Source: Deroplatys truncata | Taxonomy: Eukaryota; Arthropoda; Insecta; Mantodea; Mantidae | Length of the DNA stretch: 64,000 nt | Direction: 5' to 3' | NCBI GenBank assembly: GCA_030765065.1 | Contig: CM060990.1 | Location: forward strand, 415,347,198 to 415,411,197 | The notes under the pieces: model-generated | Told to the model about the DNA's origin: nothing | Databases searched by the model: none | What the model saw: only the letters and a program-made list of their open reading frames with translations | Made by a program: the position numbers and the translations under genes | Part shown: piece by piece, positions 1 to 49,693 of the stretch | Layout: every line of letters begins with the position of its first letter | Position numbering within the stretch: position 1 is the stretch's first letter

Positions 1-1374
1 AGTCCAAGAGATATGCAAACTTTTGAGTAGCGAATAGAGCTGAGAAAGCCTGGCTGAAGCAAGGATAACAGCACGATTGATATGTGGGCGCCGGGTAAGG
101 GTGGTGTCGAAAAACACTCCAAAATACTTTACTAGAACAGGAGAAGGTAATCAGGGAATACAGGTGTTATGGATATACAAGGATGGGGGTGAACGAATGG
201 TACGGAGAGAGAAAATATTTGCCTCTGTCTTGTGGGGGTACAGTGAAATGCACCAGGTAGTGTACCAGTGAATAAGAGAGGTCAAGGAAACCTGCAGGGC
301 AGCAGGAGCAGTAGGAAGATCGTGATGGGAGTAGTAAAGAAATGTGTCGTCGGCATATAACGCTACTTCTGCAAGCTCTAGGTGCGGAAGATCTGAAGTG
401 TAAACACTGAACAGAAGTGAAGCTAAGATGGAATCCTGGGGGACACCAACGCGAATAAATTTCAGTGAGGAGCATGTGCCACGTATACAAACGACGAACT
501 GTCGATTCGAAAAAAGTAGCAAAAACTTCCTGCAAGTACTGGTGAAGGCCTACACGAAAGAGTTTGAGCATAAGGCCATCGTGCCACACTTTATCAAAAG
601 CCTGGGCGACATTCATGAACGTGGTCGGTGTATATTGTCGATTTTCAAATCCATGAACAACGGCTTGAGTGAAACGGAATAGTTGGTGTTTAGCAGAGTG
701 ATCTGGTCTAAAGCTAAACTGAAATGGCCGGATAACATTATTCCGGAAGACAAACTGAGACAAACGACGATGAATAACCTTCTCAAGGAGATTGGAAGGG
801 TTGGGTACTAAACTATTTGGACGGTAACTTGACGGTAAATGCCGGGGCTTATTGAGTTTAGGAAAGACAATAATCTGAGTAAGTATCTAAGCGGCGGGAA
901 AGTAGCCGAGACGTAAGGCAGCGTTCATAATGGAAGAAAGGTAAGCCAGAGCCTTTTTGGTGAGTTTCTTTAATACGATGTTGGGAATCAGGTCGAGTCC
1001 AAGAGATTTCTTATTCGGAAGGCGGGAGATGAAATGCGACAACTCCCCGGGCTGGTAAAAGACATTCGGACAGGAACAGTGGATTGCGATTTAAAAGCAT
1101 GTTCTGTACGAAGGGATTGGGAAGTAGGAACATCAAAACCAGAATCAGGAGTAAATGTTTGCTCGAAATGTGAAGCCAGAACCTCACATTTGTCAAAAGA
1201 AGACGTAATAAGTGTATCGCCATGATGAAGGCTACAAACAACGGTGGTTTTCCAAAGAATGCTTCAAGTCGTTTGTGGAACATGTGGTCATCTGGAGAAA
1301 GAGTGGCTAGGTGGCGTTGAAAGGTTTGGAAGCGTGGTGTTCGAGTTCCAGTTTCACACGACGTATACGCCCAA
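1..1374 (-). pseudogene. Jockey-like LINE, reverse transcriptase part of ORF2 (broken, runs off the left edge)
   Basis: Minus-strand reverse transcriptase of a non-LTR retrotransposon, downstream of its endonuclease. The frame at 763-167 shows the palm motif AFDKVWHDGL. The frame at 522-151 shows GVPQDSILASLLF followed by ALYADDT, the catalytic YADD box. These two pieces of one RT domain lie in different frames, so at least one frameshift separates them, and another separates them from the endonuclease. The Gly of the usual GVPQGS motif is Asp. The element continues past base 1, so its 3' end and tail are not visible. The RT would copy element RNA at a nicked target, but this copy cannot encode it. 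Jockey clade is judged from the endonuclease and gag that accompany it. Confidence 0.85.
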
Positions 1375-2355
1375 TTAATCTGACGGAGCCAAGGTTGCCA
1401 TTCCCGCTGCCAGTGACGCCGAATGTGATTCTTCATTTGACTGAGGACAATAAGAAAGGGGGGTAGTTGGGATGGAAAAGGGCATTGAGAAGAGACCGTG
1501 GAATAGCGTAGGCTGGAGCAAATGGCATCTGTAAAATGCATCAATATCTTCCGGAGTGACAATGTGATAGGAGGTTGACAGAGGCGCATTCAGCCGTTCT
1601 TGAAAAGCATCCCAGTGCACGTAGCCATTAATGAGCCGTGGTGGCGGAGGAATGAAACCCAGACCAAGGGAGAAAGCAGCTAAGATTGGGCAGTGGTCAG
1701 AATTCAGCTCGGTTAGAGAGTTCATATAAAGTCGTAAACCCTGGTTTCTATAAATGCCAATGTCAATGATATCCGGAGATACCTTGGGATTGGTAGAATA
1801 ATGAGTGGGATCAGAAGGAGCCAGAATATTGCAGAGAGAACTGCTGAGAAATTGTTGGAGACGACGGCCATTGGTGTTAGTAGTTCTACATCCCCAGGAG
1901 GTATGCTTACAGTTCAGATAGCGTAATAGAAGAATGCGGCCACGATCAGGAAAAAGAAATGAAAGAAAATGTGTGTTGAGGTTGTAATTAGAAGGTTTAT
2001 AGGCACCGATGAGGACCAGATGGTGAAGTTTATCATCAGGAGAGTGAAGTTTAATACCAACAACTTCTAATGCTGGGAAATCAGCGAGAAAGATGGCGCT
2101 ATGATGGAGCCGACGTCTCACAGCAAGGGAAACACCCCCTGAGGCCGTTAAAAATGCTCGATCGCGCCGATAAACGTGATAACCAGGAAGAGTAAATTGT
2201 TCATTGGAAAGAAAATGAGTTTCCGTGACACAGGCGATATCTATGTTATGCATTGTGAAGAAAGAGATAAATGAAGCTCGTTTGCTTTGAAGGCCATTGG
2301 CGATCCATTTGAGGAGAGTGAGACTATTAACAGAGCGGCGATTAGGGAGTACCAT
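1375..2355 (-). pseudogene. Jockey-like LINE, apurinic-type endonuclease part of ORF2
   Basis: A 326-codon minus-strand frame starting at ATG 2355. It reads as the N-terminal endonuclease/exonuclease/phosphatase domain of a jockey-clade ORF2. Visible signatures are VTETHF with the catalytic Glu (residues 43-48), YLNCKHTSWGC (146-156), DPTHYSTNP and SPDIIDI, and NSDHCPIL near residue 219. Members of the family normally carry GDLN before the KH motif. Here the Asp is Tyr (residue 146), so target nicking is probably lost. The frame breaks in the linker before the RT domain. The gag ORF lies just upstream on the same strand, the usual order of a LINE. Confidence 0.88.
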
Positions 2356-2391
2356 TGATACTAATACTTGTCACGTATGTATGAACAATGT

Positions 2392-3904
2392 TCAGAAGTT
2401 GTGGCAAATAAGGTATAAGAAAAGTACGAAGGACAGCAAATAGTTGTGTGAACAGATCAGTAAACCAGGCCCAAGAACGTGAATCACCAGAGGTCTTGCA
2501 GCAGGCAATGAGGCACTCGGACGAGAGGAAGGAGAACGCAGAAAGCCAGAAAATGATCTGCGTGCAGAAGAGCGAGATGAAGCCTGGTCGGGAGATAGCG
2601 TCTGCTGTTGTTTCTGTTGTTGCTGCTGATGGGACGAACGGAGCTGATGCTGTGAGGTAGAGATATCCCGAGGCTGCCGAGGCAACTCTGACGGAGCAGG
2701 CTGCGGGGACGTTGTGGTGAACGTTGTGGCGAAAGTGTCCCCTGAATGGAACGTTGCTTGAATTTCAAATAATGAGGACAGTCACGATAATTTGCGGGGT
2801 GTTCTTGATGGAAATTGACGCTCTGTGCTGGCGTGGTAGTAGGTTTAGCACACTTTGAGTAATGATTTTCACCCAGACGGCGAAAACAGCGGGACCCTAT
2901 CTGGCAATAGTTTTTCGTGTGACCATAGTTTTGACATCGAGTACACTGTGCTAAGTCTGCATTGCGGCGGCAGGGTTCCACAGTCACCACACTGTAGAGT
3001 AAACGGGTGAAATTGAGAATACCTCTGCCCGAATAATCGTTCAACAACTCGACGGCACAAAGAGGAATAGCTTGTTTAGCTCTGTTGAATAAGCTAGTGA
3101 CTTTTTGAACAGGATACTGCTGAGATCACAGTTCATCGTATATTTCTTTATCACTGAGAGAGAAGGTACATTTCGAATGTTCACAGAAAGAAATCTTATC
3201 CACTGGATTTCTATATGTAAAATATTCCTGCTTGATGCTTGTGAAATAGCGAGTGAGATTGCGAAAATCAGAAGAGGTAGAGGAATATAACTTAACAATA
3301 GATCCACGCAACTCAGTATGAAACTCGGACGTAACATGTTGCTTAATGTCATGCAAGAGTAATTGATAATTGTGTACATTACGTAGACATATTGGTGGAA
3401 TGCGCTTCTTAGATGTGGAACAGCCGGAGGAGTATTTTCCGGCGCAGTATCATCTTCCAAAGTCTGAAGACGATTATGCGTAGGAATGGCATAACGTGGA
3501 GCATTTGACGTTTGTGAAGGCGCTGCTACACAAACACGTTTATGTTGTCCTGCCGGTGGTGAAGAGGGCGGAGCGGAGCGCACAAGGCTGGTAGATGTGC
3601 TGGCACAGAGGCCGTGTAATAGGGAATAATCCTCCATGTGGATATCATTGGAAGCTTTTGCAGAATGGGTAGTCACAACACACATTGGAGAAGACAGAAG
3701 CACAGTGGTAGACACGGGTAGCGCGGAAGCAGATGGTGTAGAGGTAACAGTTGGAGACAAACTCGACGGTGAGGAATGAGCTAAGACGGGCTGGTGTGAT
3801 ACAGTCGGAGCAAGTTGAGGAACAGACACATGTTCCTGATCGGCATTAGCATAAGCTAAATCAATAGCCGAGCGAAGAAGCTCGCCTGTATTACGTTCTG
3901 GCAT
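2392..3904 (-). pseudogene. Jockey-like LINE, ORF1 gag with zinc knuckles (broken)
   Basis: Gag-type nucleic-acid-binding protein of the same element. The ATG at 3904 opens a Ser/Pro-rich N-terminus. One frameshift near 3.36-3.42 kb moves the reading into the frame of 3356-3126, which ends in a nonsense codon. The same frame resumes at 3047 and shows the zinc knuckle CTRCQNYGHTKNYC (CX2CX4HX4C), then a degenerate second Cys/His cluster (CFRRLGENHYSKC). Another shift near 2.68 kb leads into a Gln-rich tail ending near 2392. Order and spacing to ORF2 fit a jockey-type LINE. The DNA from 3905 to about 4080 is the probable 5' UTR. Confidence 0.82.
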
Positions 3905-4080
3905 GAGAGCGGTATAAGGCACTTGTACGATAACTACACTTAAAAATGTAAGCGAAAACAGTAATTGACGTGAACACACGCAATAACACACGCGAATGTA
4001 GAAATAAACACTGAAAAAGGAATTACGTTCCTTCGAGAACTGAACGCGAACGCACAGAGAGAGGTGTAAACACGACCTTC

Positions 4081-4881
4081 TTTCGTGATAGCTGACAACC
4101 GACTTTTCTTCAAATTGTTGATTGTGAAGGATATATTATACTATGTTACTCAATTTCTTATTACCGCTGCTGTTAAATGTAAATAAGCAAATCAAACTAA
4201 TGAATTCTGAATAGGAATGTAGAACATAAGATACTGTAATGTTCTAAACATTCACGTGATATGTAATCAGAATCCGTTATGAAGGTGACTTTAAAGATGG
4301 CATTACCATGACCTGGGACTAATACACTATTGAGCTTACAAATTGAAGGATTGCGCTGCCAGCTCTGGATAAGAAATAACTAGTGTGCAGGGCAAATCAC
4401 AGTCACATTTCTGCTTAAGCTTTATTTATTCACTTCCAGGAACGGTAGAAAAGCGTATTTGTTCTTCAGATATACGGAAACAGCTAACAGTGAACATTCC
4501 CATTTGTGAACTCATTTTCTGAAATATTTTCCTTTTGAAAAGCGCCATTGAATCACGAGATAGCACTCCTATACATTTGCAGAAGTCAAATATATCTATG
4601 AAATCACCTGTTAACACCTGCAGGGATAGCTCACTCGGTAACATTGCTGACTAGAGTGAAATAGTGCTGTGATCGATTGTCTCTGTAAAAATTCTTCTTC
4701 TGTTTAAGAAGAGAGTTGCATGTATACACGAATAGCATTAGTAATTTTAATTTCTGAATAATCCAGAAGGTAAAAAGACATTTAGCTTTAGTGCAATAAA
4801 GTCACTTCTAAAAAGGGTTTATTATGCTGCTTAAATTTATTGCGTAGGAACACCTGCAATGTTGTTCATCGCCTTAAGAAG
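4081..4881. other. Intergenic, nothing recognised
   Basis: AT-rich DNA between the LINE 5' end and the first long SINE. No open frame longer than 72 codons and no recognisable repeat. It ends at the left copy of the SINE target-site duplication. Confidence 0.6.
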
Positions 4882-4890
4882 TTAGCTTAC

Positions 4891-5451
4891 ATACCGAGCG
4901 GGATTGCTCACGCGATTACGTCTGTGGCCCGCATTCGGGAGGTCCCGGGATCGATCCCTGGCGACCGCCCACTCTGGCTTATGCGTTTTTTGTGGGGTTT
5001 CCGGGTCGGCAGGCGAATTTATCTACCACGGCTCTCCTTCTCATTTCCTGTGACAATCATCTTCCTTGTTATCTGTTTCAGGGTTTTAGGACCAGGCGGC
5101 GGGTTACGCCTGGGCCGTGGCTTGCGCTCTGTAAAGGTTTCTTCCCTGGCGACGTTGCGGTACAGTTCAGTTAGGGCTCTCCTCAGCGTGAAACTCCGCT
5201 CCGGAGGGCCCTGGAGATTGGTGGCTTTTGGGTAGGGACCGTGCGGCGTCGGTTGCGTTCTGTCTGGAAACGTTAGGGATCCCGTCTGTGCTTGCTCCTG
5301 TCGGAATCCAGATCTGGTTGCCCTTAAGATCTCTCCCCTCATCCTTCCCTCCCAGTGGCCATGTTGGAAGCATAAAGGGCCGCCTGGCCTGCGTGCAGTG
5401 CTCTGCCCCGTTTCCGGAGGCCCCTCCGTAATACGTACCTTTATCCTTTGC
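4891..5451 (+). mobile_element. Long tRNA-derived SINE (family 1), intact ends
   Basis: The head is tRNA-like: GGGATTGCTCACGCGATTACG resembles an A box and GGGATCGATCCC a B box, so RNA polymerase III promotion is expected. A GC-rich body of about 480 bp follows, with blocks shared by the other copies (TGTTTCAGGG, CTCTGCCCC, CCTCCGTA). The direct repeat TTAGCTTAC lies at 4882-4890 and 5452-5460, marking retroposition by a LINE endonuclease. Open frames inside it are incidental. It is unusually long for a SINE. Confidence 0.82.
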
Positions 5452-27605: not shown

Positions 27606-27611
27606 CATGGA

Positions 27612-27660
27612 AGTAGCATATATAGGGGGAAGCCGGCACAGTTTTTTGCGTCTATATGGG
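27612..27660 (+). repeat. Left terminal inverted repeat tip of the palindromic element
   Basis: Begins AGTAGCATATATAGGGG and continues into the GCCGGCACAGTTTTTT and GCGTCTATATGGGAAAGGA segments. The right tip (39,552-39,600) is the inverse with a few substitutions and small indels. Outside the tips only the 6-bp duplication is shared, which defines the element boundary. Confidence 0.93.
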
Positions 27661-29070
27661 AAAGGATAGGGAAAACGAGGGTATATGCGGCACTTTAAGG
27701 GGGAAAATGCGTTTATATGGGGAAGATAGGGACTATGAGGATCGATGCTAGGCTAAGACAGGGGTTGAAGGACTAGGGATGTGCTTTATATGTGAAGGTA
27801 GGGAATACGAGAAGAAGTGCTATGCTAGACAGGGCTTGAAGGGTAGAATATGACTTTTATATGGGAGAGCTACTAGACTATTCAGAGTTTGAAGGGTAGA
27901 GTATGGCTTTTTATATGAAGAGACGAGGAAAACGAGGGGAGTAGCTAGGTTGAAGGAGCGTTCAAGGAGGAAAATGAGTTTATATGGGAGAGATAGGGAA
28001 AACGAGGAGAGTGAGATATGCTTTATACGACAGAGATGGGGCATACGAGGGGAGGTGCTAGCGTAGACAAGATTAAGGTGCAGGGTATACGTTTATACGA
28101 GGAATATAGGGAAAACGGGGACAGGTGGTATGATAGACAGAAGCTGGGCCACTTCTACGTTTATATGGGAAAGGATAGGGAAAACGAGGGTAGATAGGGA
28201 ATACCAGGGCTGATGCTAGGCTAGTCAGATGCTGAAGGAGGGATGGATACGCTTTATACGAGAGAGATAGGGAGTACAGGGAAAGATGCTATACTAAACA
28301 GGACTTGAAGGGTAGAATATGGCGTTTTATATGGGAGAGATAGCGAACCGAGGAGAGTTATTAGGCTAGGAGGTTTGAATGATAGAGTAGGCGTTTATAT
28401 GCGAGAGATAGGGAATACGAGGGTCGATGCTAGGCTAGACAGGGCTGAAGTAGGGGAATGCGCCTTATATGAGAGAGGTAGGGGAATATGAGGAGAAGTG
28501 TTAGGCTAGACAGGGTTTGAGGTGTGGAATATGCGTTTATATGGGAAAGATAGGGGAAACGTGTACAGATAATAGGCTAGACAGATGCTGAAGGACGGGA
28601 ATATAGGCTTATACGGGAGAGATATGGAAATACGAGGTGAGATGCTAGACTAGACTGATGCTGAAGGAGGAGGGGATACGCTTTATACGGAAGAGATAGG
28701 GAATACGAGGAGAGGTACTAGACCATACAGAATTTGAAGGGTATAATATAGCGTTTTTATATGGGAGAGCTAGCAAACCGAGGAGAGGTATTAGGCAGGA
28801 AGGTTTGAATGACAGAGTATGCGTTTATATGGAGAGACGAGGAAAACGAATGTAGGTGCTAGGTTGAGAGAGTCTTCAAGGAGGAAAATGCATTTATATG
28901 AGAGCGGTAGGGAATACGAGGAGAGGTGCTAGTCTAGAGAGGGGTTGAGGAGTAGAGTATACGTTTATATGGGAGAAATGTGGAAAACGGGAGTGGTACA
29001 AGAATAGACAGTGGTTGAAGGAGGAGGAATGTAGGTTTATACGGTAATATAGAGAGTAATTAGATTATAA
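27640..29070 (+). repeat. Terminal tandem repeats of the left arm, ~20 units of ~70 bp
   Basis: A degenerate minisatellite with the consensus order GCGTTTATATGGGAGAGATA, GGGAATACGAGGAGAGGTGC, TAGGCTAGACAGGGTTGAAG. From about 28,325 the GTTTATATGG motif recurs every 68-76 bp. Many units differ by 10-20%. The mirror array is at 38,150-39,580. There is no coding potential. Its position next to the tip suggests a role in end recognition or replication, which is inference. Confidence 0.92.
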
Positions 29071-29261
29071 AACATTTCTCATCCAACGTTACAACACTTT
29101 TATATACTTTTTTCTAAACCTTACAAACTTTTATATGTTAAACAGCAGTGCGCGAGACGGAGAGGGACAAACTGTATATCGGGTTACAGTGAAGTATACG
29201 TCCTAACCTATTCCCACCTTGTATGTTCTGGATTTTCTCATTGTCTATTCATTCCTATCAT

Positions 29262-29455
29262 CATCTAACGTAACCACGTAACAAGACGTAACACAACGTA
29301 ACATAACAGCATGACAAGACGTCATACTAAGTAAAATAAGCACGTAACCACGCAACATCACGCGACATCTCGTAACCAGAAACGTCACACGACGTAACAA
29401 CACGTAGCAACTATGTAACCACGTAACAAAACGTAAGAACAACACGTAACCAGCC
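29262..29455 (+). repeat. ACGTAAC-type short motif array, left arm
   Basis: About twenty irregularly spaced copies of CGTAACA/CGTAACC-like words (ACGTAACCACGTAACAAGAC and variants) within ~190 bp, between the minisatellite and the polymerase gene. The mirror copy is at 37,755-37,950. It could be a protein-binding array or a degenerate satellite. Confidence 0.75.
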
Positions 29456-29907
29456 CATTGCTAAGGTAATCTAAGCTAATCCATCCTTCATAACTTAGAC
29501 AATAAGTACGAGAGCCTAGCCTAGATTAACCTGACCAATCCCAAACGTTCATCTCATCATCTATTCCACTCAGTCATCGTCTAACCTAATCTGGCTAACC
29601 AGAGATAACCTCAACTTTCTTTTAGTGAAATTGCAATGTTTTATTCGGGTTTTATTATTCGAGAGTTTTAATTGGAAAGTTTACGCCAACATACCTTATT
29701 TTAGTTCGTTGTAGGTGTCTCTCCCCTTTTTATCTAGGCTTGAGACTAGCACTAGGATTGCTCCTAATGGCAGGGTTACCACCTTCCCTTCCATCTTCTT
29801 CTTTCTTCATCAGGCGTCAGATAGTTGCATACACAGCACACGGATAACCTTCATTTTTTTAAGATTGTAGACTCACTAGAAAATCTTTATCTTTGACTTA
29901 CATTCTT

Positions 29908-31299
29908 TTAAGCGCTAGTTGTAATGGCGTAATGTCCATACGCATATATCGTTACTCCATCCTCAGCAATAACTCTTTTATCATCAAACGGAGTCAATGT
30001 GATTTTATTCACTTGCACTGTGGCAAGAGCATGCTCCCGAGACAGGATCAGATTCATGGGTGTTCTGATGATTTCTCCGGTTTTAAGACAGTCAGCATAA
30101 CTCTCAAATGTAATGTAATGATTACTTGCACTACGTTTAATGCCTTTAATCTTTTTTACCATTGAGCCATGGATATCTAGGGCATACATCTTAGGTCGTA
30201 GTCCGACAAAGCGCTGGATGATTTTACCATTAGCCTCATCTTTAAATTTTCCCAACACCTTCTTGTTTAGAGCTGAATAGCATATATGGTTGACAGGGTA
30301 ATCAGATGTATCTAGGTGTTCGAGAAAACGTAGCTTATCCTGGTACACATCTTCAGTCATCACACGATGAATGAACGAATCAGTGTCCATATACATGAGC
30401 TTCAGGTTTTCAAATCCATAATATGGCAGCAACACATCATAATGATAGTGGTACATTAATGTCTTGGAGATGTCCAACACACTCATACCGATGTATATAG
30501 GCTTGTTGAATACGATCTGACGAGAGGCCATATGTACAGAGGCTAGATTAGCAGCATATATGGTTCGATCGATAAACGTAGGCTTTGCAATTAACTTTTC
30601 CAGAGTCTTCTCATTTGTCACCAGTCGTATATCCATACGGTTACGAAGGTTTTCCATTGTTTTTCCAAACATGGCGTTGTTAAACAGTTTGTAGAGGTCC
30701 TTCTCAAAATCATTTGCAGCCTTTTGTCGTAGTCTGTTGTTAAATTCCACATACGGTTTTAACCACTGTGACTCACGGAATTGTAGCACACGATGAATTT
30801 TTGTTAACCGTAGTCCATGATTAAGTGCTTGCTTCAAAGCCATGTAATGTACTATATACTTCTTTCGAGGTCCAAGATGAGGTATCAGTTTCTTTGTACT
30901 CGAGTCCTTAGGCTTCATACACTCAGGCAGGAATGGTAAATCATTATGCAGATCGTGAAGTTCTGCAGGATACTCGATATCGACTTCTAATATATATCCA
31001 TGAGGATCATCTTCTTGTAGTCTTTCTAAGTCAATTTTTTCAGGTGATATCCACTCAAATCCACCATAAGGGAGGGCGTGACACATGGCCCACCCAGATT
31101 GGTTATTAGCGTCCTCATATGTAATGAATTGGGTTGGTCTCGACGGATCATACTTGTCCATGTAAGCGTTATTAGCCTCTGCATAACGGTGGGAGACTTG
31201 ACATGAACCTCCTCTTATACCGGATTCCACCATGAGCAATTGGTCATAATCCTGTAACAGTTCCAGCTGAATTCCTGTATACAGAACATGGCATCCCAT
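29908..31299 (-). pseudogene. Family B DNA polymerase, C-terminal polymerase half (left arm)
   Basis: A 463-codon frame carrying the polymerase palm and thumb of a protein-primed family B polymerase. The motif A region is YEDANNQSGWAM with Asp63. Motif B is KLFNNAMFGKTMEN (about 204-217). Motif C is YMDTDSF with Asp305 and Asp307. The Leu-Tyr normally found after the motif A Asp is Gln-Ser here. The frame is offset by one base from the N-terminal ORF, which it overlaps by 85 bases, so the product is not continuous. Its own ATG lies inside the conserved WDAM segment and is unlikely to be a natural start. Stop codons do not interrupt the rest. Confidence 0.9.
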
Positions 31300-33533
31300 G
31301 TAAGTCCTGGAGAGGTAAAATAATGGGCCGGATCGACTTTATGCGTTTTGAGGTTTTGATCTCTAAATGTCTCAAAGACATCAGCTAGAAGAAGTACATC
31401 AGATATTAAGTAGAGGTCGCTGTACTCGCCCAGGTTTCTTGCATTAAACAGCTCCCATACAGTTCTAGAATGATCGTAATCAGCATCACTAATTTCTTCT
31501 TCATTCAATTTATTGTAGAAGTAGTTCTTAGGAGGCAGGCAGGTTTCGTTCAAAACATCCCATGAAGTGACGTAATCATAGGGAAATACACCCTTACGTG
31601 TCATCAACATCATCTTGTCTTCTCCGATGTGTTTCAGTGTTTCAGGGTGCGATGTTAGATTCTTCACCAGCTTATCCAATCTTGTACTCAGGAACCGAAA
31701 ACTATCTACCAACCGAAGCTTTATATCTCCTACATACTTGGAGAATGATATATAGCTTTCTTCAGAGCTAGGAATTACTTCCACCCGCTCACTTGTACAT
31801 CCCAGCTCCTTAACAATGAAGTGTGAGTCATACCCGCTGAGGTTGTGCATGAAGACTGGAATATATTTAGGTGCTTTACATGCTAAATTACATTCATTAT
31901 GTAGACTTCCCCGATATTCACCACTGATGTGATCATGGTCGCGTACTTTATAGTTCTCTTCAGTAAAGGTTTTTCCACACAAGTAGCATACTGTAGAGGC
32001 GTTGAAATCCATCTGTTGTTGATTTGTAAGTTTCAGAGGCATAACAGATTTGTATATATTATTAATCTCCCTTGCAAGGAATGACAGGTATTCCATAAAC
32101 TTCTGAGCAGCATCAGCACCACGATATCCATCGGGATGCTTAGGAAGACCAGTTTCCAGATGCTCAACGTTGGTTGATGGTTTAACGTAAACGCAGAAAC
32201 TCATGGGAACATGCTGCTGATAAGGGGATGTATATGAAGTTTCAGGATCGTGTATGCATGTATGACATGGAGCGAGAATGCTTTCAAAGTCTGCATAGAT
32301 GACGTAAGGTAGTTTCAACATCCTTTCAAAATTTTTAAATTGTACAATTGATTTCTCCTTTGTAGGCATAACTACCCTTGCAACACCATGCTGATTACAG
32401 ATGGTGGCATGTTCTTGTAGTTTTTCCAGTCCACTTTGTCCATATCGATCGTCAAAATGTGTAAAACAACGCTTACAGGTATAAACACGTTCTTTATGCA
32501 TAGTTTTCTGACATCGAATAAGTTTTTCAAAATTCTTTATATAAACGTAGTGATGTCTCCCACTACTGTCACTCAATAGCAGGAGGTCACGGTGATCAGG
32601 TAGTTCAGTCTCAGCAACCTTTGTCGGATACACTTCATGCTTCTCATCCAGGCCGAAGACATTGATAGACATCCTGTTAAGCTTCTCGAATTTAGGTATT
32701 TGAGAAAGTGGCGTAGGGTAGGAAACACAGCTGAAGTCGTATTTATTTTGAAGTTGTTTGTATTTGTTCACACGCTGTGCATTCTTCCCTATGAATTTAG
32801 CTAATACAGAATACATGAAACATTTCTCATCGGCAAAGTTCTGGATGTTAAGGCAGGCTTTTCTTGCTTCAAAAGATGGCGGTAGTGGTATGTAGCTACT
32901 TCCTCGTAACGGGTTGTACTTGTTGATACGAAGTCGAACTCCTTCAACAGCAAGCAGAGCCCAGTTGCTACCCTTAAGCTGAGACTCCTCCATTTCAGTG
33001 ACCATCTTCTTCATTTTCGTTTCCAACATAGAGTCCAGATCCGTTTCTAGGACAACAGCTTGATTCCGTGTTTTAAATGTTTTGTCGCAGGTTTCTCCGA
33101 CACTGTTAACAAATCTACACTCAGCTAGCAGATTAATTTTCACACTTTTGTTAATACCAAGCTCTTTATATACAGCCTGGATTATCCGCTGTTTCGCCTC
33201 ATGCAGGTACATATTCAGGTCCTTAGCTGATTCACATCGTATAAAATATGATTTCAAGCGTCCATTGAATGAAGTTTCATAATCTTTCATGTCACAGTCA
33301 TTCATGATAGAAAATAACTCGTGCTTAGTGGGTTCTAATCTACGTTTCTTCTCAGGTCTGTTTATTTCACACGCATCTTCGTGTCGGCGACCCTTATAAC
33401 TGTCTTTGAAGGCTACATTACAATATTTACACTTTTTACAACGTAGCTCATGTCGTCTTTTGTCATATCCACGGAGGAACTTATTGCAGCATTTACCACA
33501 AGAATATCCTGAGGCACTAGGAATGATATCCAT
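31215..33533 (-). pseudogene. Family B DNA polymerase, N-terminal half with exonuclease and HNH insertion (left arm)
   Basis: A 772-codon frame whose ATG at 33,533 directly follows an in-frame TAG. Residues 12-55 hold two Cys/His clusters (CGKCCNKFLRGYDKRRH; KYCNVAFKDSYKGRRH) typical of zinc fingers. Exonuclease motif I is YADFESIL (413-420, Asp415/Glu417), motif II HNLSGYDSHF (563-572) and motif III YLISD (708-712). Between I and II sits CYLCGK with RDHDHISGEYRGSLHNECN (516-549), an endonuclease VII-like HNH fold. The frame ends 23 codons beyond WDAM because of an apparent one-base loss. The catalytic exonuclease residues are kept. A replicase for protein-primed copying is the expected role. 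Confidence 0.9.
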
Positions 33534-34245
33534 CTATGAGGAGTTATTCATTTTTCTTCTTGATATAATAAGGTATTAACCTTTCTTCAAGGAAATGTAC
33601 GCCTCTTTACCTTGATAACGCTTTAGAAGGTTGCTTATTTTCTAGGAGAAGAACGATGTGGCCACCTCGGAGATGATTAACAGAATGAAGTTCAATACTC
33701 AAGTTCGTTCTATTTATAGAGGAAGCACGAACTTTTTTGATCAATTATACTGAATATTAATACTAAAAACGGTGATGAAGCGTGTAAGCTCTTATATTTC
33801 AATTCGTGTTACACTGATGTTCGAGCGTCTCCGTATAGCTTCGTATGCTTAGAGAAAGTGTAAAGTATTGTGAAGATGTATCTATTGTTCGGGTATAATC
33901 GTACAGATTCGGAGAGCTTGACTCGTGAAGGTGATGAACGATCCGTTGACCGAGCAAGAGGCAAGCATTCCCTCTGCGAAACGAATCCTAGAAGCACAAA
34001 GATGCAAATGAAAGGAAATCGTGATAGCATATACCTCTCAGGCATTCGCCTGTAGACCAGGGAAAACCACGAAAATCCCAGGCTACAGTGAGTGTCCAAC
34101 GGGACTCGAACCAAGGACTCTAGAAGTACACGTGAAAGATATAAATGAAAAAGATTTAAAGGGAAAGGAAAACGGAATCGACGAGAAACCACCCAGACAA
34201 TCGCCTGCAGACCAAGACAAACCACAAAAAATATGACGTCGGTGT
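32963..34245. other. Asymmetric spacer at the centre of the palindrome
   Basis: The only part of the element not duplicated. 32,963-33,533 holds the first ~190 codons of the polymerase, absent from the right copy. 33,534-34,020 is AT-rich, with no coding similarity, and probably contains the polymerase promoter. 34,030-34,125 resembles an inverted tRNA-SINE piece (GGGAAAACCACGAAAATCCC; GGGACTCGAACC as an inverse B box). 34,198-34,235 partly repeats its CAATCGCCTGCAGACCA segment. Confidence 0.75.
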
Positions 34246-34259
34246 GAGCTCTGCTTGCT

Positions 34260-35932
34260 GTGGAAGGAGTTCGACTTCGTATCAACAAGTACAACCCGTT
34301 ACGAGGAAGTAGCTACATACCACTACCGCCATCTTTTGAAGCAAGAAAAGCCTGCCTTAACATCCAGAACTTTGCCGATGAGAAATGTTTCATGTATTCT
34401 GTATTAGCTAAATTCATAGGGAAGAATGCACAGCGTGTGAACAAATACAAACAACTTCAAAATAAATACGACTTCAGCTGTGTTTCCTACCCTACGCCAC
34501 TTTCTCAAATACCTAAATTCGAGAAGCTTAACAGGATGTCTATCAATGTCTTCGGCCTGGATGAGAAGCATGAAGTGTATCCGATAAAGGTTGCTGAGAC
34601 TGAACTACCTGATCACCGTGACCTCCTGCTATTGAGTGACAGTAGTGGGAGACATCACTACGTTTATATAAAGAATTTTGAAAAACTTATTCGATGTCAG
34701 AAAACTATGCATAAAGAACGTGTTTATACCTGTAAGCGTTGTTTTACACATTTTGACGATCGATATGGACAAAGTGGACTGGAAAAACTACAAGAACATG
34801 CCACCATCTGTAATCAGCATGGTGTTGCAAGGGTAGTTATGCCTACAAAGGAGAAATCAATTGTGCAATTTAAAAATTTTGAAAGGATGTTGAAACTACC
34901 TTACGTCATCTATGCAGACTTTGAAAGCATTCTCGCTCCATGTCATACATGCATACACGATCCTGAAACTTCATATACATCCCCTTATCAGCAGCATGTT
35001 CCCATGAGTTTCTGCGTTTACGTTAAACCATCAACCAACGTTGAACATCTGGAAACTGGTCTTCCTAAGCATCCCGATGGATATCGTGGTGCTGATGCTG
35101 CTCAGAAGTTTATGGAATACCTGTCATTCCTTGCAAGGGAGATTAATAATATATACAAATCTGTTATGCCTCTGAAACTTACAAATCAACAACAGATGGA
35201 TTTCAACGCCTCTACAGTATGCTACTTGTGTGGAAAACCCTTTACTGAAGAGAACTATAAAGTACGCGACCATGATCACATCAGTGGTGAATATCGGGGA
35301 AGTCTACATAATGAATGTAATTTAGCATGTAAAACACCTAAACATATTCCAGTCTTCATGCACAACCTCAGCGGGTATGACTCACACTTCATTGTTAAGG
35401 AGCTGGGATGTACAAGTGAGCGGGTGGAAGTAATTCCTAGCTCTGATGAAAGCTATATATCATTCTCCAAGTATGTAGGAGATATAAAGCTTCGGTTGGT
35501 AGATAGTTTTCGGTTCCTGAGTACAAGATTGGATAAGCTGGTGAAGAATCTAACATCGCACCCTGAAACACTGAAACACATCGGAGAAGACAAGATGATG
35601 TTGATTACACGTAAGGGTGTATTTCCCTATGATTACGTCACTTCATGGGATGTTTTGAACGAAACCTGCCTGCCTCCTAAGAACTACTTCTACAATAAAT
35701 TGAATGAAGAAGAAATTAGTGATGCTGACTACGATCATTCTAGAAATGTATGGGAGCTGTTTAATGCAAGAAACCTGGGCGAGTACAGCGACCTCTACTT
35801 AATATCTGATGTACTTCTTCTAGCTGATGTCTTTGAGACATTTAGAGATCAAAACCTCAAAACGCATAAAGTCGATCCGGCCCATTATTTTACCTCTCCA
35901 GGACTTACATGGGATGCCATGTTCTGTATATA
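34260..35932 (+). pseudogene. Family B DNA polymerase, truncated N-terminal half (right arm)
   Basis: Inverted duplicate of the left-arm ORF starting at the equivalent of residue 197. The first codon is GTG, an internal valine, so the copy has no start codon, zinc fingers or first ~190 residues. Exonuclease motifs I-III and the HNH insertion (CYLCGKPF, RDHDHISGEYRGSLHNECN) are all present. Several substitutions relative to the left arm are conservative (for example AP to TP and KY to KH after NLACK). The same frameshift follows WDAM. In addition CAG has become TAG, so the frame closes just after MFCI. Confidence 0.9.
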
Positions 35933-37300
35933 GGAATTCAGCTGGAACTGTTACAGGATTATGACCAATTGCTCATGGTGGAATCCGGTATAAGAGGAGG
36001 TTCATGTCAAGTCTCCCACCGTTATGCAGAGGCTAATAACGCTTACATGGACAAGTATGATCCGTCGAGACCAACCCAATTCATTACATATGAGGACGCT
36101 AATAACCAATCTGGGTGGGCCATGTGTCACGTCCTCCCTTATGCTGGATTTGAGTGGATATCACCTGAAAAAATTGACTTAGAAAGACTACAAGAAGATG
36201 ATCCTCATGGATATATATTAGAAGTCGATATCGAGTATCCTGCAGAACTTCACGATCTGCATAATGATTTACCATTCCTGCCTGAGTGTATGAAGCCTAA
36301 GGACTCGAGTACAAAGAAACTGATACCTCATCTTGGACCTCGAAAGAAGTATATAGTACATTACATGGCTTTGAAGCAAGCACTTAATCATGGACTACGG
36401 TTAACAAAAATTCATCGTGTGCTACTATTCCGTGAGTCACAGTGGTTAAAACCGTATGTGGAATTTAGCAACAGACTACGACAAAAGGCTGCAAATGATT
36501 TTGAGAAGGACCTCTACAAACTGTTTAACAACGCCATGTTTGGAAAAACAATGGAAAACCTTCGTAACCGTATGGATATACGACTGGTGACAAATGAGAA
36601 GACTCTGGAAAAGTTAATTGCAAAGCCTACGTTTATCGATCGAACCATATATGCTGCTAATCTAGCCTCTGTACATATGGCCTCTCGTCAGATCGTATTC
36701 AACAAGCCTATATACATCGGTATGAGTGTGTTGGACATCTCCAAGTCATTAATGTACCACTATCATTATGATGTGTTGCTGCCATATTATGGATTTGAAA
36801 ACCTGAAGCTCATGTATATGGACACTGATTCGTTCATTCATCGTGTGATGACTGAAGATGTGTACCAGGATAAGCTACGTTTTCTCGAACACCTAGATAC
36901 ATCTGATTACCCTGTCAACCATATATGCTATTCAGCTCTAAACAAGAAGGTGTTGGGAAAATTTAAAGATGAGGCTAATGGTAAAATCATCCAGCGCTTT
37001 GTCGGACTACGACCTAAGATGTATGCCCTAGATATCCATGGCTCAATGGTAAAAAAGATTAAAGGCATTAAACGTAGTGCTAGTAATCATTACATTACAT
37101 TTGAGAGTTATGCTGACTGTCTTAAAACCGGAGAAATCATCAGAACACCCATGAATCTGATCCTGTCTCGGGAGCATGCTCTTGCCACAGTGCAAGTGAA
37201 TAAAATCACATTGACTCCGTTTGATGATAAAAGAGTTATTGCTGAGGATGGAATAACGATATATGCGTATGGACATTACGCCATTACAACTAGCGCTTAA
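35909..37300 (+). pseudogene. Family B DNA polymerase, C-terminal half (right arm)
   Basis: Inverted duplicate of 29,908-31,299 with identical length and no indel. Motif A YEDANNQSGWAM, motif B KLFNNAMFGKTMEN and motif C YMDTDSF are unchanged, including the unusual Gln-Ser. A handful of amino-acid changes distinguish it from the left copy (for example GGFEW to AGFEW, SKT to SKS). It overlaps the upstream frame by 24 bases in a different phase. Confidence 0.9.
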
Positions 37301-37754
37301 AAGAATGTAAGTCAAAGATAAAGATTTTCTCGTGAGTCTACAATCTTAAAAAAAATGAAGGTTATCCGTGTGCTGTGTATGCAACTATCTGACGCCTGAT
37401 GAAGAAAGAAGAAGATGAAAGGGAAGGTGGTAACCCTGCCATTAGGAGCAATCCTAGTGCTAGTCTCAAGCTTAGATAAAAAGGGGAGAGACACCTACAA
37501 CGAACTAAAATAAAGGTATGTTGGCGTAAACTTTCCAATTAAAACTCTCGAATAATAAAACCCGAATAAAACATTGCAATTTCACTAAAAGAAAGTTGAG
37601 GTTATCTCTGGTTAGCCAGATTAGGTTAGACGATGACTGAGTGGAATAGATGATGAGATGAACGTTTGGGATTGGTCAGGTTAATCTAGGCTAGGCTCTC
37701 GTACTTATTGTCTAAGTTATGAAGGATGGATTAGCTTAGATTACCTTAGCAATG

Positions 37755-37950
37755 GGCTGGTTACGTGTTGTTCTTACGTTTTGTTACGTGGTTACATAGT
37801 TGCTACGTGTTGTTACGTCGTGTGACGTTTCTGGTTACGAGATGTCGCGTGATGTTGCGTGGTTATGTGCTTATGTTACTTAGTATGACGTCTTGTCATG
37901 CTGTTATGTTACGTTGTGTTACGTCTTGTTACGTGGTTACGTTAGATGAT
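37755..37950 (-). repeat. ACGTAAC-type short motif array, right arm
   Basis: Mirror of 29,262-29,455, here as GTTACGTGTTGTTACGTCGT and similar words, almost unchanged in sequence. Confidence 0.75.
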
Positions 37951-38149
37951 GATAGGAATGAATAGACAATGAGAAAATCCAGAACATACAAGGTGGGAAT
38001 AGGTTAGGACGTATACTTCACTGTAACCCGATATACAGTTTGTCCCTCTCCGTCTCGCGCACTGCTGTTTAACATATAAAAGTTTGTAAGGTTTAGAAAA
38101 AAGTATATAAAAGTGTTGTAACGTTGGATGAGAAATGTTTTATAATCTA

Positions 38150-39580
38150 ATTACTCTCTATATTACCGTATAAACCTACATTCCTCCTCCTTCAACCCCT
38201 GTCTATCCTTGTACCACTCCCGTTTTCCACATTTCTCCCACATAAACGTATACTCTACTCCTCAACCCCTCTCTAGACTAGCACCTCTCCTCGTATTCCC
38301 TACCGCTCTCATATAAATGCATTTTCCTCCTTGAAGACTCTCTCAACCTAGCACCTACCTTCGTTTTCCTCGTCTCTCCATATAAACGCATACTCTGTCA
38401 TTCAAAACTTCCTGCCTAATACCTCTCCTCGGTTTGCTAGCTCTCCCATATAAAAACGCTATATTATACCCTTCAAGTCCTGTATGGTCTAGTACCTCTC
38501 CTCGTATTCCCTATCTCTTCCGTATAAAGCGTATCCCCTCCTCCTTCAGCATCAGTCTAGTCTAGCATCTCACCTCGTATTTCCATATCTCTCCCGTATA
38601 AGCCTATATTCCCGTCCTTCAGCATCTGTCTAGCCTATTATCTGTACACGTTTCCCCTATCTTTCCCATATAAACGCATATTCCACACCTCAAACCCTGT
38701 CTAGCCTAACACTTCTCCTCATATTCCCCTACCTCTCTCATATAAGGCGCATTCCCCTACTTCAGCCCTGTCTAGCCTAGCATCGACCCTCGTATTTCCT
38801 ATCTCTCGCATATAAACGCCTACTCTATCATTCAAACCTCCTAGCCTAATAACTCTCCTCGGTTCGCTATCTCTCCCATATAAAGCGCCATATTCTACCC
38901 TTCAAGTCCTGTTTAGTATAACATCTTTCCTTGTATTCTCTATCTCTCTCGTATAAAGCGTATCCATCCCTCCTTCAGCATCTGACTAGCCTAGCATCAG
39001 CCCTGGTATTCCCTATCTACCCTCGTTTTCCCTATCCTTTCCCATATAAACGCAGAAGTGGCCCAGCTTCTGTCTATCATACCACATGTCTCCGTTTTCC
39101 CTATATTCCTCATATAAACGTATACCCTACTCCTTAATCTCGTCTACGCTAGCACTTCCCCTCGTATGCCCCATCTCTGTCGTATAAAGCATATCTCACT
39201 CTCCTCGTTTTCCCTATCTCTCCCATATAAACGCATTTTCCTCCTTGAACGCTCCTTCAACCTAGCTACTCCCCTCGTTTTCCTCGTCTCTTCATATAAA
39301 AAGCCATACTCTACCCTTCAAACTCTGAATAGTCTAGTAGCTCTCCCATATAAAAGTCATATTCTACCCTTCAAGCCCTGTCTAGCATAGCACTTCTTCT
39401 CGTATTCCCTACCTTCAGATATAAAGCACATCCCCAGTCCTTCAACCCCTGTCTTAGCCTAGCATCGACCCTCGTAGTCCCTAACTTCCCCATATAAACG
39501 CATTTTTCCTTTTGAAGGGCCGCATATATCCTCATTTTCCCTATCCTTTCCCATATAAACGCAAAAAAAACTGTGCCAGC
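38150..39580 (-). repeat. Terminal tandem repeats of the right arm, ~20 units of ~70 bp
   Basis: Mirror of the left array, reading here as TATCTCTCCCATATAAACGC and CTTCAACCCCTGTCTAGCCT blocks. Unit-by-unit differences from the left arm are few, so the arrays were copied as a whole rather than expanded separately. Confidence 0.92.
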
Positions 39581-39600
39581 TTTCCCCTATATATGCTACT

Positions 39601-40562
39601 CATGGATGTTATCAAATGCCTAGCCAAGTCTTCACGAGAGGCTACTTCCTCCGAAGCATCCTGTATTTGGTCCCACGAAACCTCGTTTGTCTTGCGTTAT
39701 CTTACACGCCAATTAAACACCAAAGCTTTCTTCACGTCTGCCACACATTTTCAATACGTTTTAAATATGGCGAGCAAGGAGGTCAATCAATTGCTATGAT
39801 ATGTTGCCTTGAGTAAGCTTGTTTGAAAACCGTTGACTTGTGTGGACAGGATGGTTATCCTGCTGGAATTAAATCATTCCATCGGAACATCCAGTCCTTA
39901 CGGAAGGAACCATAATTTTTCGAGGACGTATTTGTACTGCTGGCTTTTTAATGTGCCATCGCGCTACCACAACACACCTACACCATCTCGTAATATCCAA
40001 TCCCAACACGACACAGATACGCGACTTTGGCAATATATTTGTGCCCCGTGGTTTGCTCGTAGCGTTTTCATCTGGGGCGGTAAGTACCTTTCTCCCCATT
40101 TGTAGATGAAAATTTCACCTCGTCTGTGAATGTAACCCAATTCCAGTTATGGATGACATCTTCTTCTGCAAATGCGAGACGACATAATCTGTGATCGTCT
40201 GTAAGATCTCACCTCACCTTTTGAAGAAGGGGTGGTTCAGCTGTTTCACTGCCTCACGCTCGTTCACCAATTCACTAATTAGGTATTCATGCTTCCTAAT
40301 ATTCGTGTTACAAATTTGTCCCCTTTGACTCATTTTCAATGGTTATAGCTGCCGATCGAGCAAAGAGTCCTGCTGTAGTCAAACGACCCAAGGCTGTGTG
40401 ATTCGATCCAGGGCAATTAGAATTTCTTATTATTGTAGACACATGCTGGAAGGAATTGCTGTCTGACTCTTCTAGAAGTGCAGTGTCCTGCTGAGGAGTG
40501 GACAAACGTTTTCGACTCGGACGAGAGCAACGACGAACAATCCCTTCCCTGGATAACCGCAC
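39601..40562 (-). pseudogene. Tc1-like transposase, N-terminal and catalytic part (right of the nested insertion)
   Basis: The minus-strand frame 40,562-40,308 reads RPSRKRLSTPQQDTALLEES and then GRLTTAGLFARSAA, the paired-like DNA-binding domain of Tc1-type transposases. Further left, through stops and shifts, FTDEVKFSSTNG (first Asp, near 40,120), AGxPSCPHKS in the second-Asp region (near 39,850) and PYLKRIENVW (third-residue block, near 39,750) can be read. The coding sequence is interrupted at SM, where the palindromic element begins, and continues at 27,605. The gene was already decaying or has decayed since. Confidence 0.8.
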
Positions 40563-48363: not shown

Positions 48364-49693
48364 CGAGGCGCATCCAGAAAGTAAGTTTCTCGGTTTCGTT
48401 TCCTTTAAAGTAAACGTATTTAGCCGGGAAAATTGCGCACTCAGAACATATCTATGACATATCAATCATATGCCGGCCGGACACATCCCGCCTGGTATCA
48501 GTAGCGCGGCACCAGTGGCCCAAAATGGCGGCTCTTATTCGTTCTCCCGCCACCTGCGAGGTTCGATGAGTGATAAGGTACCCCCTTGTACAAAACATAG
48601 CGCCGATCGAAATTCCTCGTCAGCTCTGTCAGGTCTACGGGCCGAACATCATGAGCAAACGGATGGTGCGTCGCTGGTGTAAACAGTTTTCCGAAGGTCG
48701 TCAAAATGCCCATGATGAAGAGCGCAGTGGGCGACCGCCCTCGTAAATGATGACCTTGTTGAGCTGGTGCGTCAGTGCATCGTGGAGAACCGCCGCTTCA
48801 CGATTACGGAGCTCAGCAGCTATTCTCCGCAGATATCGCGATACCTGTTGCACGAAATTGTCACTAAGCACCTGCTGTTTAGGAATTTGTGTGCCAGGTG
48901 GGTGCCGAAATACCTGACACAGGAGCACAAAACGAAACGCTTAGGAGCAGCACTGACATTTCTGCAGCAGTATCATGATGACAGCGACGAGTTCCTCGAA
49001 AGGATCGCCACGAGCGATGAAACGTGGATTTCGCACTTTGCCCCGGAAACCAAGCAGCAGTCAATTCATTGGCATCACAGTGGATCTCCGGTCAAGGCTA
49101 AATTCAAACAGACCGTGTCGGTGCAGAAAGTGATGTGCATGGTGTTCTGGGACAGGAAGGGCATTCTGCTCATTGACTTCCTACCCAGAGGTGAAAGTGA
49201 ATGCTGACCGTTACTGTGAAACACTGCGGAAATTGAGACGTGCCATTCAAAACAAGAGGCGTGGAATGTTTACTGCAGGTGTTGTGCTGCTCCATGACAA
49301 TGCTCGTCTACATACAGCTCGGCGCACAGCAACTGTTCTGCAGGAGTTCGGCTGGCAGCTGTTTGATCATCCACCATACAGTCCTGATCTTGCTCCCAGC
49401 GATTTCCATCTTTTCTTGCACCTCAAGAAACTCCTGTTCTCTGGTCAGCGTTTTGATAACGACGAAGAGCTGAAGACGACTGTCACACACTGGTTCCATT
49501 CACAGGCGGCAGACTTCTGAGACATACGAATACAAAAGTTGATCCCCTGATATGACAAGTGTCTCAATTCTGTGGTGACTATGTCGAAAAATAGCTCAAA
49601 CATTGCTGTATCTGTTGCCAATAAAGTTTTTCATGTAACTATGTTTTCTTTTTTTAAACAAATTAGTGAACCTTACTTTCTGGATGCGCCTCA
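48364..49693 (+). mobile_element. Mariner transposon with complete ends
   Basis: 1,330 bp bounded by TA duplications (48,362-48,363; 49,694-49,695). The inverted ends are GAGGCGCATCCAGAAAGTAA and its inverse TTACTTTCTGGATGCGCCTC. It contains one transposase gene with frame breaks. Size, TA target and DD34D motifs place it in mariner. Confidence 0.93.
48570..49520 (+). pseudogene. Mariner transposase (broken)
   Basis: The N-terminal part lies in broken frames: MVRRWCKQFSEGRQNAHDEE is readable near 48,660-48,720. The main frame 48,767-49,207 has the first catalytic motif ATSDETWISHF. A shift near 49,190 leads to the frame 49,173-49,520, with HDNARLHTA (second Asp) and YSPDLAPSDFHLFLHLKK (third Asp), the DD34D signature. 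All three acidic residues are present, but at least two frame lesions prevent a single product. Confidence 0.88.

What the first reader, a model, noticed from the sequence alone, without database searches (positions are those of the whole stretch)
27612..39600. A 12-kb palindromic, polymerase-only mobile element
Seen: two inverted ~5.35-kb arms with identical tips, a 6-bp CATGGA duplication outside both tips, and a protein-primed-type PolB in each arm. No integrase, protease, ATPase or capsid gene is present. Known: Maverick/Polinton elements have 6-bp duplications, terminal inverted repeats, an AG start and PolB, but are normally 15-20 kb and gene-rich. Inference: a snap-back (fold-back) replication product of one terminus that then integrated as a unit, giving two identical ends. 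If other copies share the same palindromic layout, this is a distinct non-autonomous element class.
Basis: partly seen in the sequence, partly recalled or inferred. Interest (0 to 1): 0.9.

Follow-up and report, generated by a model that had tools for sequence, protein, structure and literature searches.

The report
Palindromic polymerase-only jumping DNA family
This 12-kb stretch is a worn copy of a large family of mobile DNAs that are built as mirror images, carry one viral-type DNA-copying gene in each half and no other recognised gene of their own, and insert as complete mirror images, a design that our literature searches did not turn up.

Summary
Window 27612-39600 has inverted arms (27612-32960, 34245-39600; 98.8% identical), CATGGA duplicated outside both tips, and a Polinton-type PolB in each arm. 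It is not a one-off. The host genome (4.29 Gb) holds a large family with this layout: 15 of 15 copies whose two ends were read carry 6-bp duplications (12 exact). A young subfamily (493 tips, about 245 copies) is typically 17.17 kb; the one read through has 8,549-bp arms 99.99% identical, a roughly 70-bp loop and an intact PolB frame in each arm. The window copy is an internal-deletion derivative: its spacer/arm junction is private among scored hits. Away from the tips the two arms of one copy are each other's closest relatives, so they are homogenised. PolB shows purifying selection between copies and neutral decay between arms. Gene-rich Polintons with open integrase frames abound and could supply integrase in trans. 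Best model: a Polinton-derived replicon that kept its replicase, lost integrase and capsid, and spreads as a palindrome copied through a fold-back/hairpin. Each arm also has a candidate twister-P1 ribozyme downstream of PolB. The hairpin step and the helper are inferred; gene conversion after insertion also acts.

The parts
27606..27611 (.). left 6-bp target-site duplication CATGGA
27612..32960 (+). left arm of the palindrome (tip at 27612, AGTAGCATATATAGGGG)
   Evidence: 98.79% to the right arm; 38 other near-full-length tip rows in the genome, a capped list
28192..29026 (+). subterminal tandem repeats, 73-bp period
   Evidence: GC skew +0.57 in 28001-29000, -0.51 in 38001-39000
29715..29782 (-). 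candidate twister-P1 ribozyme, 125 nt downstream of the PolB stop, same sense
   Evidence: 52.2 bits, E 1.7e-9, below the gathering score of 67.2; 95-98% identical in the young copy L049
29908..31299 (-). PolB, C-terminal piece (463-aa ORF)
   Evidence: matches PolB of a gene-rich Polinton
31215..33533 (-). PolB, N-terminal piece (772-aa ORF) with Endonuclease_7 match; frame broken near 31.28 kb
32961..34244 (.). spacer: in other copies this sequence is part of the arm; here only the left side keeps it
34244..34245 (.). private internal-deletion junction; TGAGC shared by both sides
   Evidence: only this copy matches the 200-bp junction query end to end (1 of 43 rows; the rest match one side) (flanking sequence)
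34245..39600 (-). right arm (tip at 39600)
34260..35933 (+). right PolB, N-terminal piece, 5' truncated by the deletion
   Evidence: DNA_pol_B_2 E 4.4e-12, Endonuclease_7 E 8.7e-6
35909..37300 (+). right PolB, C-terminal piece
37427..37494 (+). candidate twister-P1 ribozyme of the right arm
   Evidence: 46.6 bits, E 6.6e-8
38169..39018 (-). subterminal 73-bp repeats of the right arm
39601..39606 (.). right 6-bp target-site duplication CATGGA

Best explanation
The window holds an internally deleted copy of a multi-copy family of Polinton-derived elements whose intact form is a near-perfect palindrome of about 17 kb. Each half has a tip, subterminal repeats, a twister-like ribozyme, one PolB gene pointing outward and inner sequence; a short loop (about 70 bp in the one young copy read through) sits at the axis. 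SHOWN: the palindrome is the unit that inserts, with a 6-bp target duplication; arms of one copy are homogenised; PolB has been under purifying selection; no gene of a gene-rich Polinton other than PolB was found in the copies read. INFERRED: PolB copies the element from its two identical ends by protein priming. The displaced single strand is self-complementary and folds into a hairpin whose stem is the two arms paired with each other. Copying or repair of that hairpin makes the arms identical again and again. An integrase supplied in trans by the abundant gene-rich Polintons inserts the linear palindrome. After insertion the arms decay neutrally, are in part corrected against each other by gene conversion, and central deletions such as the one in this copy accumulate.
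For: Family: 15 of 15 copies with both ends read have 6-bp duplications, 12 exact and 3 with one mismatch. Of 68 ORFs of 150 aa or more in the copies read, 59 match PolB; six others lie in copy P's records (nested insertion), two are antisense to PolB, one is in this copy's spacer; ten ORFs of a gene-rich Polinton give no match. Young subfamily: 493 tips, control 0; 47 pairs among the 100 places listed, 24 of them 17.00-17.20 kb long; 17 minus/plus PolB pairs and 6 single rows among 40 scored, 11 spaced 9,952-9,977 bp. L049/L050: arms 8,549 bp at 99.988%, TSD CATAAC, a 1,225-codon open PolB frame in each half. Arms of one copy are sisters in 9 of 9, 7 of 7 and 10 of 10 copies testable in three arm pieces. 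Young copies: 0, 0, 0 and 5 substitutions between own arms in about 950 bp, 2-10 between copies; 0-2 against 3-5 in 10 nt beside the loop, three copies. Codon positions: arm-arm differences 149/126/142, between-copy sites 116/71/255, Fisher p 4e-12. Helper: 38 Pox_A32 matches; 140 scored integrase matches, 134 without stops.
Against: No hairpin, terminal protein or extrachromosomal form was observed. In older copies arm differences are clumped (9 of 11; in B partly through tandem repeats), the outermost 600 bp do not pair the arms in 5 of 11 copies, this one included, and changes private to a copy but shared by its arms look neutral (46/35/50 over eight copies): all fit gene conversion in the chromosome after insertion. 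In one of four young copies (T1) the left tip is nearer to another copy (2 differences) than to its own right tip (5), and T2's arms differ by 8 gap columns. One of 14 PolB pairs from the window query stands in the other order (plus/minus, C1:177757588/177771093) and 12 of 40 rows are unpaired. No integrase is tied to these tips; the one gene-rich element examined showed no terminal repeats in the 20 kb read. Only one genome could be searched, with capped lists.
Confidence: 0.72

Rival explanations
1. The palindromic family is real, but arms are homogenised only after insertion, by ordinary gene conversion between chromosomal inverted repeats; replication needs no hairpin intermediate.
For: Clumped arm differences in 9 of 11 copies; in this copy 29 differences in the outer 750 bp against 32 in the remaining 4.6 kb; neutral pattern of changes private to a copy but shared by both arms; young copy T1 with a left tip nearer to another copy than to its own right tip.
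Against: One young copy has about 1 difference in 8,549 bp although copies of its subfamily differ at 2-10 of about 950 bp; older copies show that conversion in the chromosome is incomplete (arms 1.1-4.0% apart), so it alone hardly explains near-perfect arms.
Confidence: 0.22
2. One reading: this copy is a one-off snap-back product of one terminus of a gene-rich Polinton that then integrated.
For: Palindrome with one duplication outside both tips; gene-rich Polintons exist in the genome.
Against: Ten other older copies and four young copies have the same two-ended layout; the spacer is arm sequence elsewhere; the one gene-rich PolB compared is 29-57% identical in the matched pieces.
Confidence: 0.03
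3. PolB-bearing palindromes are inert passengers copied by other polymerases; PolB is a relic.
For: This copy and copy B have broken PolB in both arms.
Against: Third codon positions hold 255 of 442 between-copy variable sites, and the one young copy read through has open PolB frames in both arms.
Confidence: 0.02
4. Two independent insertions or an assembly artefact (palindromic chimaeric reads).
For: Palindromic chimaeras are a known read artefact (recalled).
Against: Different flanks on the two sides with a shared 6-bp duplication in 15 of 15 copies; arms differ at 61 sites.
Confidence: 0.01

Closest known systems
Polinton / Maverick transposons (polintoviruses)
   Same: PolB of the protein-primed type by homology, 6-bp target duplication, terminal inverted repeats starting AGT, length of the young form about 17 kb. 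Vertebrate Mavericks: mean 16,862 bp, 6-bp TSD, AGT-repeat ends (PMC8097293, passages read).
   Different: No integrase, ATPase or capsid-type ORF found; PolB present twice; inverted arms of 8.5 kb against terminal repeats of 46-1,447 bp in that vertebrate set.
Foldback (FB)-type elements and palindromic defective viral genomes made by snap-back copying (recalled)
   Same: Long inverted repeats built partly of subrepeats; palindromes that keep both replication ends.
   Different: Here the palindrome is the regular, inserting, multi-copy form and encodes a selected replicase.
Gene-rich Polinton of the same genome (L047/L048)
   Same: Homologous PolB with a weak Endonuclease_7 match.
   Different: Has rve integrase, Pox_A32 ATPase and PLA2-like ORF with a weak adenovirus protein-X match; PolB 29-57% identical; no match to our tips, no terminal repeats found, no twister hit.
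Twister motifs of retrotransposons
   Same: PMC7761336 (passages read) mentions truncated twister versions at the 5' end of RTE retrotransposons.
   Different: Here the motif lies downstream of PolB in a DNA element.

Membership tests
[quoted passage not shown]
   DNA_pol_B_2 E 4.4e-12 in the right N-terminal piece; homology to PolB beside an integrase. Protein priming itself not testable.
Polinton/Maverick | 6-bp target-site duplication | tested here: met
   15 of 15 copies, 12 exact
Polinton/Maverick | terminal inverted repeats with AGT-type ends | tested here: met
   AGTAGC or AGTAGG tips; vertebrate end motif (AGT)2 per PMC8097293, here the sixth base differs
Polinton/Maverick | RVE-type integrase | tested here: not met
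   Integrase of L048 has no tblastn match (E 1e-3) in the window copy, the ten other older copies, the left part of copy C, or L049/L050; it is found in the controls L048 and L060
Polinton/Maverick | packaging ATPase, protease, capsid genes | tested here: not met
   ATPase, PLA2-like and seven other ORFs of L047/L048: no match in the same copies; a protease query was not available
Polinton/Maverick | size 15-20 kb | tested here: met
   Listed young pairs 14.2-19.5 kb, mode about 17.17 kb; the window copy is 12.0 kb. Size range per PMC4028283 (passage)
Foldback-type element (definition recalled) | long, internally repetitive inverted repeats as the only constant part | tested here: not met
   Subterminal 73-bp repeats are present, but the constant part includes a selected PolB gene
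twister-P1 ribozyme (RF03160) | Rfam gathering score 67.2 | tested here: not met
   54.3, 52.2, 46.6 and 42.4 bits in four places, E 3e-10 to 1e-6; no gathering-level hit
twister-P1 ribozyme (RF03160) | conserved core and stems | tested here: met
   Full-length alignment to the model with one non-standard pair marked; 16-row alignment 95% mean column identity, too alike to test covariation
twister-P1 ribozyme (RF03160) | self-cleavage | not testable with these tools
   needs an RNA assay

The most novel reading that the evidence does not exclude
A separate class of transposon: a self-templating palindromic replicon that encodes only its replicase, twice, and rebuilds one half from the other through a hairpin in every cycle, so that its whole length behaves as a terminal repeat renewed at each transposition (as reverse transcription renews LTRs). 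It takes its integrase from gene-rich Polintons, and a twister ribozyme trims its replicase mRNA.
Probability: 0.4. Interest if true: 0.92.

Novelty: new variant of a known kind. Interest (0 to 1): 0.8.

Why it matters
Non-autonomous transposons usually keep ends and lose enzymes. This family keeps the replicase under selection and has lost integration and packaging genes. It gives hundreds of natural long palindromes with known insertion points, whose two arms allow dating of insertions and a direct test of hairpin-mediated copying of protein-primed genomes and of arm-to-arm gene conversion. It would also link a self-cleaving ribozyme to a Polinton-type element.

Tried and rejected
Assembly artefact: rejected, because the two flanks differ and share a 6-bp duplication in 15 of 15 copies. 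Spacer as cargo: rejected, it is arm sequence in other copies. Central sequence of copy P as cargo: its ORFs look like a nested non-LTR retrotransposon (recalled motifs; no family search run on them). Copy C's centre, unlike the others', was not identified. Gene-rich parent with these tips: not found. Of 38 ATPase matches, 11 on C1-C8 lie over 3 Mb from every listed exact young tip pair (two on C9 lie beyond the listed part), and 18 on C16 were compared with 55 listed tips: the nearest is 34.9 kb away, the next 406 kb; the lists are capped, the other ATPases were not compared, and the 140 integrase places were not compared except by eye on C1. Viral-contig scan with the PolB C-terminal piece: no relative. 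Solved structures with the same piece: nothing. tRNA gene at the axis: none; the MIR hits there are taken as inverted-repeat matches. Terminal repeats of L047/L048: none found. Literature: eight searches; none of the listed titles and abstract starts describes palindromic or PolB-only Polintons, but several searches had more hits than were listed (140, 78 and 6,796 papers). Passages were read of PMC7761336, PMC6431247, PMC4028283, PMC8097293 and PMC10120064.
Full report
WHAT IS IN THE WINDOW. Arms 27612-32960 and 34245-39600 are inverted copies, 98.79% identical over 5,353 columns with 61 mismatches. CATGGA is duplicated outside both tips. Each arm, from tip to centre, has 73-bp subterminal repeats, a noncoding stretch, PolB transcribed towards the tip, and inner sequence. 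Left PolB runs from 33533 to 29908; right PolB is cut at 34245. Both have the same break in the frame. Correction: the tips are near-identical, and the outer 750 bp hold 29 of the 61 differences.

IT IS ONE OF MANY. The window lies on contig C16 of a 4.29-Gb genome. A search with the outer 400 bp gave 42 rows, 40 of them near full length including the two of this copy; 40 is the scoring limit. Many stand in plus/minus pairs 8-18 kb apart. I fetched ten further copies with both ends (B, F, H, I, M, N, P, Q, R, S) and the left part of one more (C). All ten have inverted arms, and with the window copy all 11 have 6-bp duplications, 8 exact and 3 with one mismatch. In B the arms reach 8.2 kb; in S the loop is about 0.3 kb and is itself an imperfect inverted repeat. 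What the window copy calls spacer is arm sequence, found on both sides in B, F, H, Q, R and S, on one side in M, N and C, and not in I or P. The 200-bp query across its inner junction matched end to end only itself, 1 of 43 rows; the others matched one side, and the two sides share TGAGC. So this copy is an internal-deletion derivative; such central deletions are common in long palindromes (recalled).

ONLY PolB IS CONSERVED. Of 68 ORFs of at least 150 aa in these copies (and their short flanks), 59 match PolB. The nine others are six in the records of copy P, which carries a nested insertion, two antisense to PolB in L049/L050, and one in the spacer of the window copy. Ten ORFs of a gene-rich Polinton, integrase and ATPase among them, give no match in these copies, and do match their own loci.

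THE YOUNG SUBFAMILY. A degenerate tip pattern with up to 2 mismatches found 379 tips, reversed control 0, and showed a third tip type in pairs about 17.17 kb apart. A 39-base pattern for it, one mismatch allowed, found 243 + 250 tips, control 0, about 245 copies if paired. Only the first 100 places, all exact, are listed; they give 47 pairs of 14.2-19.5 kb, 24 of them within 17.00-17.20 kb, and 6 unpaired tips. One copy (T0) was read in two halves (L049, L050): arms of 8,549 bp at 99.988% identity, about 70 bp of loop, TSD CATAAC, a 1,225-codon open PolB frame (stop to stop) in each half and no other ORF of 110 aa or more except one antisense to PolB. Three more (T1-T3) were sampled at both ends and the centre; all three have exact 6-bp duplications and inverted centres; T2 and T3 share the loop core of T0, T1 has lost it. 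A PolB query gave 40 scored rows: 17 minus/plus pairs and 6 single rows, none in the other order; 11 of 17 spacings are 9,952-9,977 bp. The PolB query from the window copy gave 13 minus/plus pairs, one plus/minus pair and 12 single rows; the plus/minus pair was not examined.

ARMS ARE HOMOGENISED. In trees of arm pieces the two arms of a copy were sisters in 9 of 9 copies (arm 2300-3800), 7 of 7 (3800-5349) and 10 of 10 (1450-2290; bootstrap 89-100); copies lacking one arm in a piece were left out. In the outer 600 bp they were sisters in 6 of 11, and unresolved in A (the window copy), F, M, N and P. The frame break of the window copy is in both its arms and in none of 25 other aligned rows, three of which are second views of the same place and one of which (L015) has a larger deletion across the site. 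In young copies own arms differ by 0, 5, 0 and 0 substitutions in about 950 bp (T0 to T3; gap columns 2, 0, 8, 2), different copies by 2-10; T1's left arm is nearer to T3 than to its own right arm. Next to the loop, a 10-nt stretch differs by 0-2 within three copies and 3-5 between them.

SELECTION. By codon position, differences between the arms of a copy are 149/126/142, sites variable between copies and agreed by both arms 116/71/255 (nine copies, N, I and C dropped for a missing arm, M and P used in one piece only). So PolB has been kept by selection along the lineage and decays after insertion. Against a pure every-cycle model: changes private to one copy yet shared by its arms are 46/35/50 in eight copies (H, the deepest branch, is 20/12/41), close to neutral, and arm differences are clumped in 9 of 11 copies. 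Both suggest that arm-to-arm gene conversion also acts in the chromosome.

HELPERS. The genome has at least 38 Pox_A32 ATPase matches and at least 140 matches to one Polinton-type integrase, its own locus included, 134 without stops (scoring limit reached). One such locus, L047/L048, has integrase, PolB, ATPase and a PLA2-like ORF; another, L060, has the same integrase next to DNA matching that PolB's end. The PolB of L048 is 29-57% identical to ours in pieces. No tie between their ends and ours could be tested.

HOW IT MOST LIKELY WORKS. Shown: the palindrome inserts as a unit; arms are homogenised; PolB is selected. Inferred: protein-primed copying from two identical ends; a self-complementary displaced strand that folds into an 8.5-kb hairpin; copying or mismatch repair in the hairpin equalises the arms; integrase comes in trans. 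This also explains why little but PolB and the ends is needed in cis. The rival is chromosomal gene conversion alone.

A RIBOZYME. In each arm, downstream of the PolB stop (125 nt on the left) and in the same sense, lies a twister-P1 match: window 29782-29715 (-) 52.2 bits, E 1.7e-9, and 37427-37494 (+) 46.6 bits, E 6.6e-8, both under the gathering score of 67.2. Between the window copy and the young copy T0 the two bins holding it are 95 and 98% identical, the next bin outward drops to 55%, and PolB bins are 77-95%; among the older copies compared the whole region is 80-100% alike, so they show no such contrast. A 105-bp stretch around it was matched at 95-100% in 25 rows, after leaving out 13 loci that overlap others or the window. 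One paper search for twister ribozyme together with Polinton gave 0 papers.

NOVELTY. By sequence it derives from Polintons and shares PolB, 6-bp duplication, AGT ends and size, but it fails the integrase, ATPase and capsid features, so I do not file it as a Polinton proper. Published vertebrate Mavericks have terminal repeats of 46-1,447 bp (PMC8097293, passages); here they are the whole half-element. Eight paper searches listed nothing like it, in a library that lacks most subscription journals.

Noticed in passing
window 29715-29782 (-) and 37427-37494 (+); L049:2904-2970 (-): Candidate twister-P1 ribozyme downstream of PolB in each arm, very well conserved between the window copy and a young copy, below Rfam's gathering score.
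   Followed up: partly
contig C16 of the genome (707 Mb, 16.5% of bases): 35 of 42 tip rows, 29 of 40 PolB rows and 18 of 38 Polinton ATPase rows lie on C16, the contig of the window (binomial p 3e-21 for tips, 9e-6 for ATPases; rows of one copy are not independent and lists are best-first), while the listed young copies are spread over C1-C9. C16 may be a sex or low-recombination chromosome.
   Followed up: no
L053, L056, L059 centres: Arms near the axis hold a stretch resembling a tRNA B box (recalled); no tRNA gene was called. The loop core lies in either orientation relative to the chromosome.
   Followed up: partly
G000:C9:40755556-40759707 and C72:159850-165853: Two places where copies of the gene-rich Polinton integrase themselves stand as close inverted pairs; possibly further palindromic derivatives.
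   Followed up: no
G000:C1:177757588-177771694: Two PolB copies of this family in plus/minus order, opposite to the usual layout; not examined.
   Followed up: no
window 167-2370 (-): Non-LTR retrotransposon remnant: RVT_1 E 9.6e-15 and Exo_endo_phos_2 E 6.6e-10.
   Followed up: partly
window 48719-49204 (+): Transposase fragment, Transposase_1 E 4.7e-12.
   Followed up: partly
G000:C10:97836107-97836741: Two tips of the GGCGCAG type facing each other only 635 bp apart: a possible MITE-like miniature of the family.
   Followed up: no
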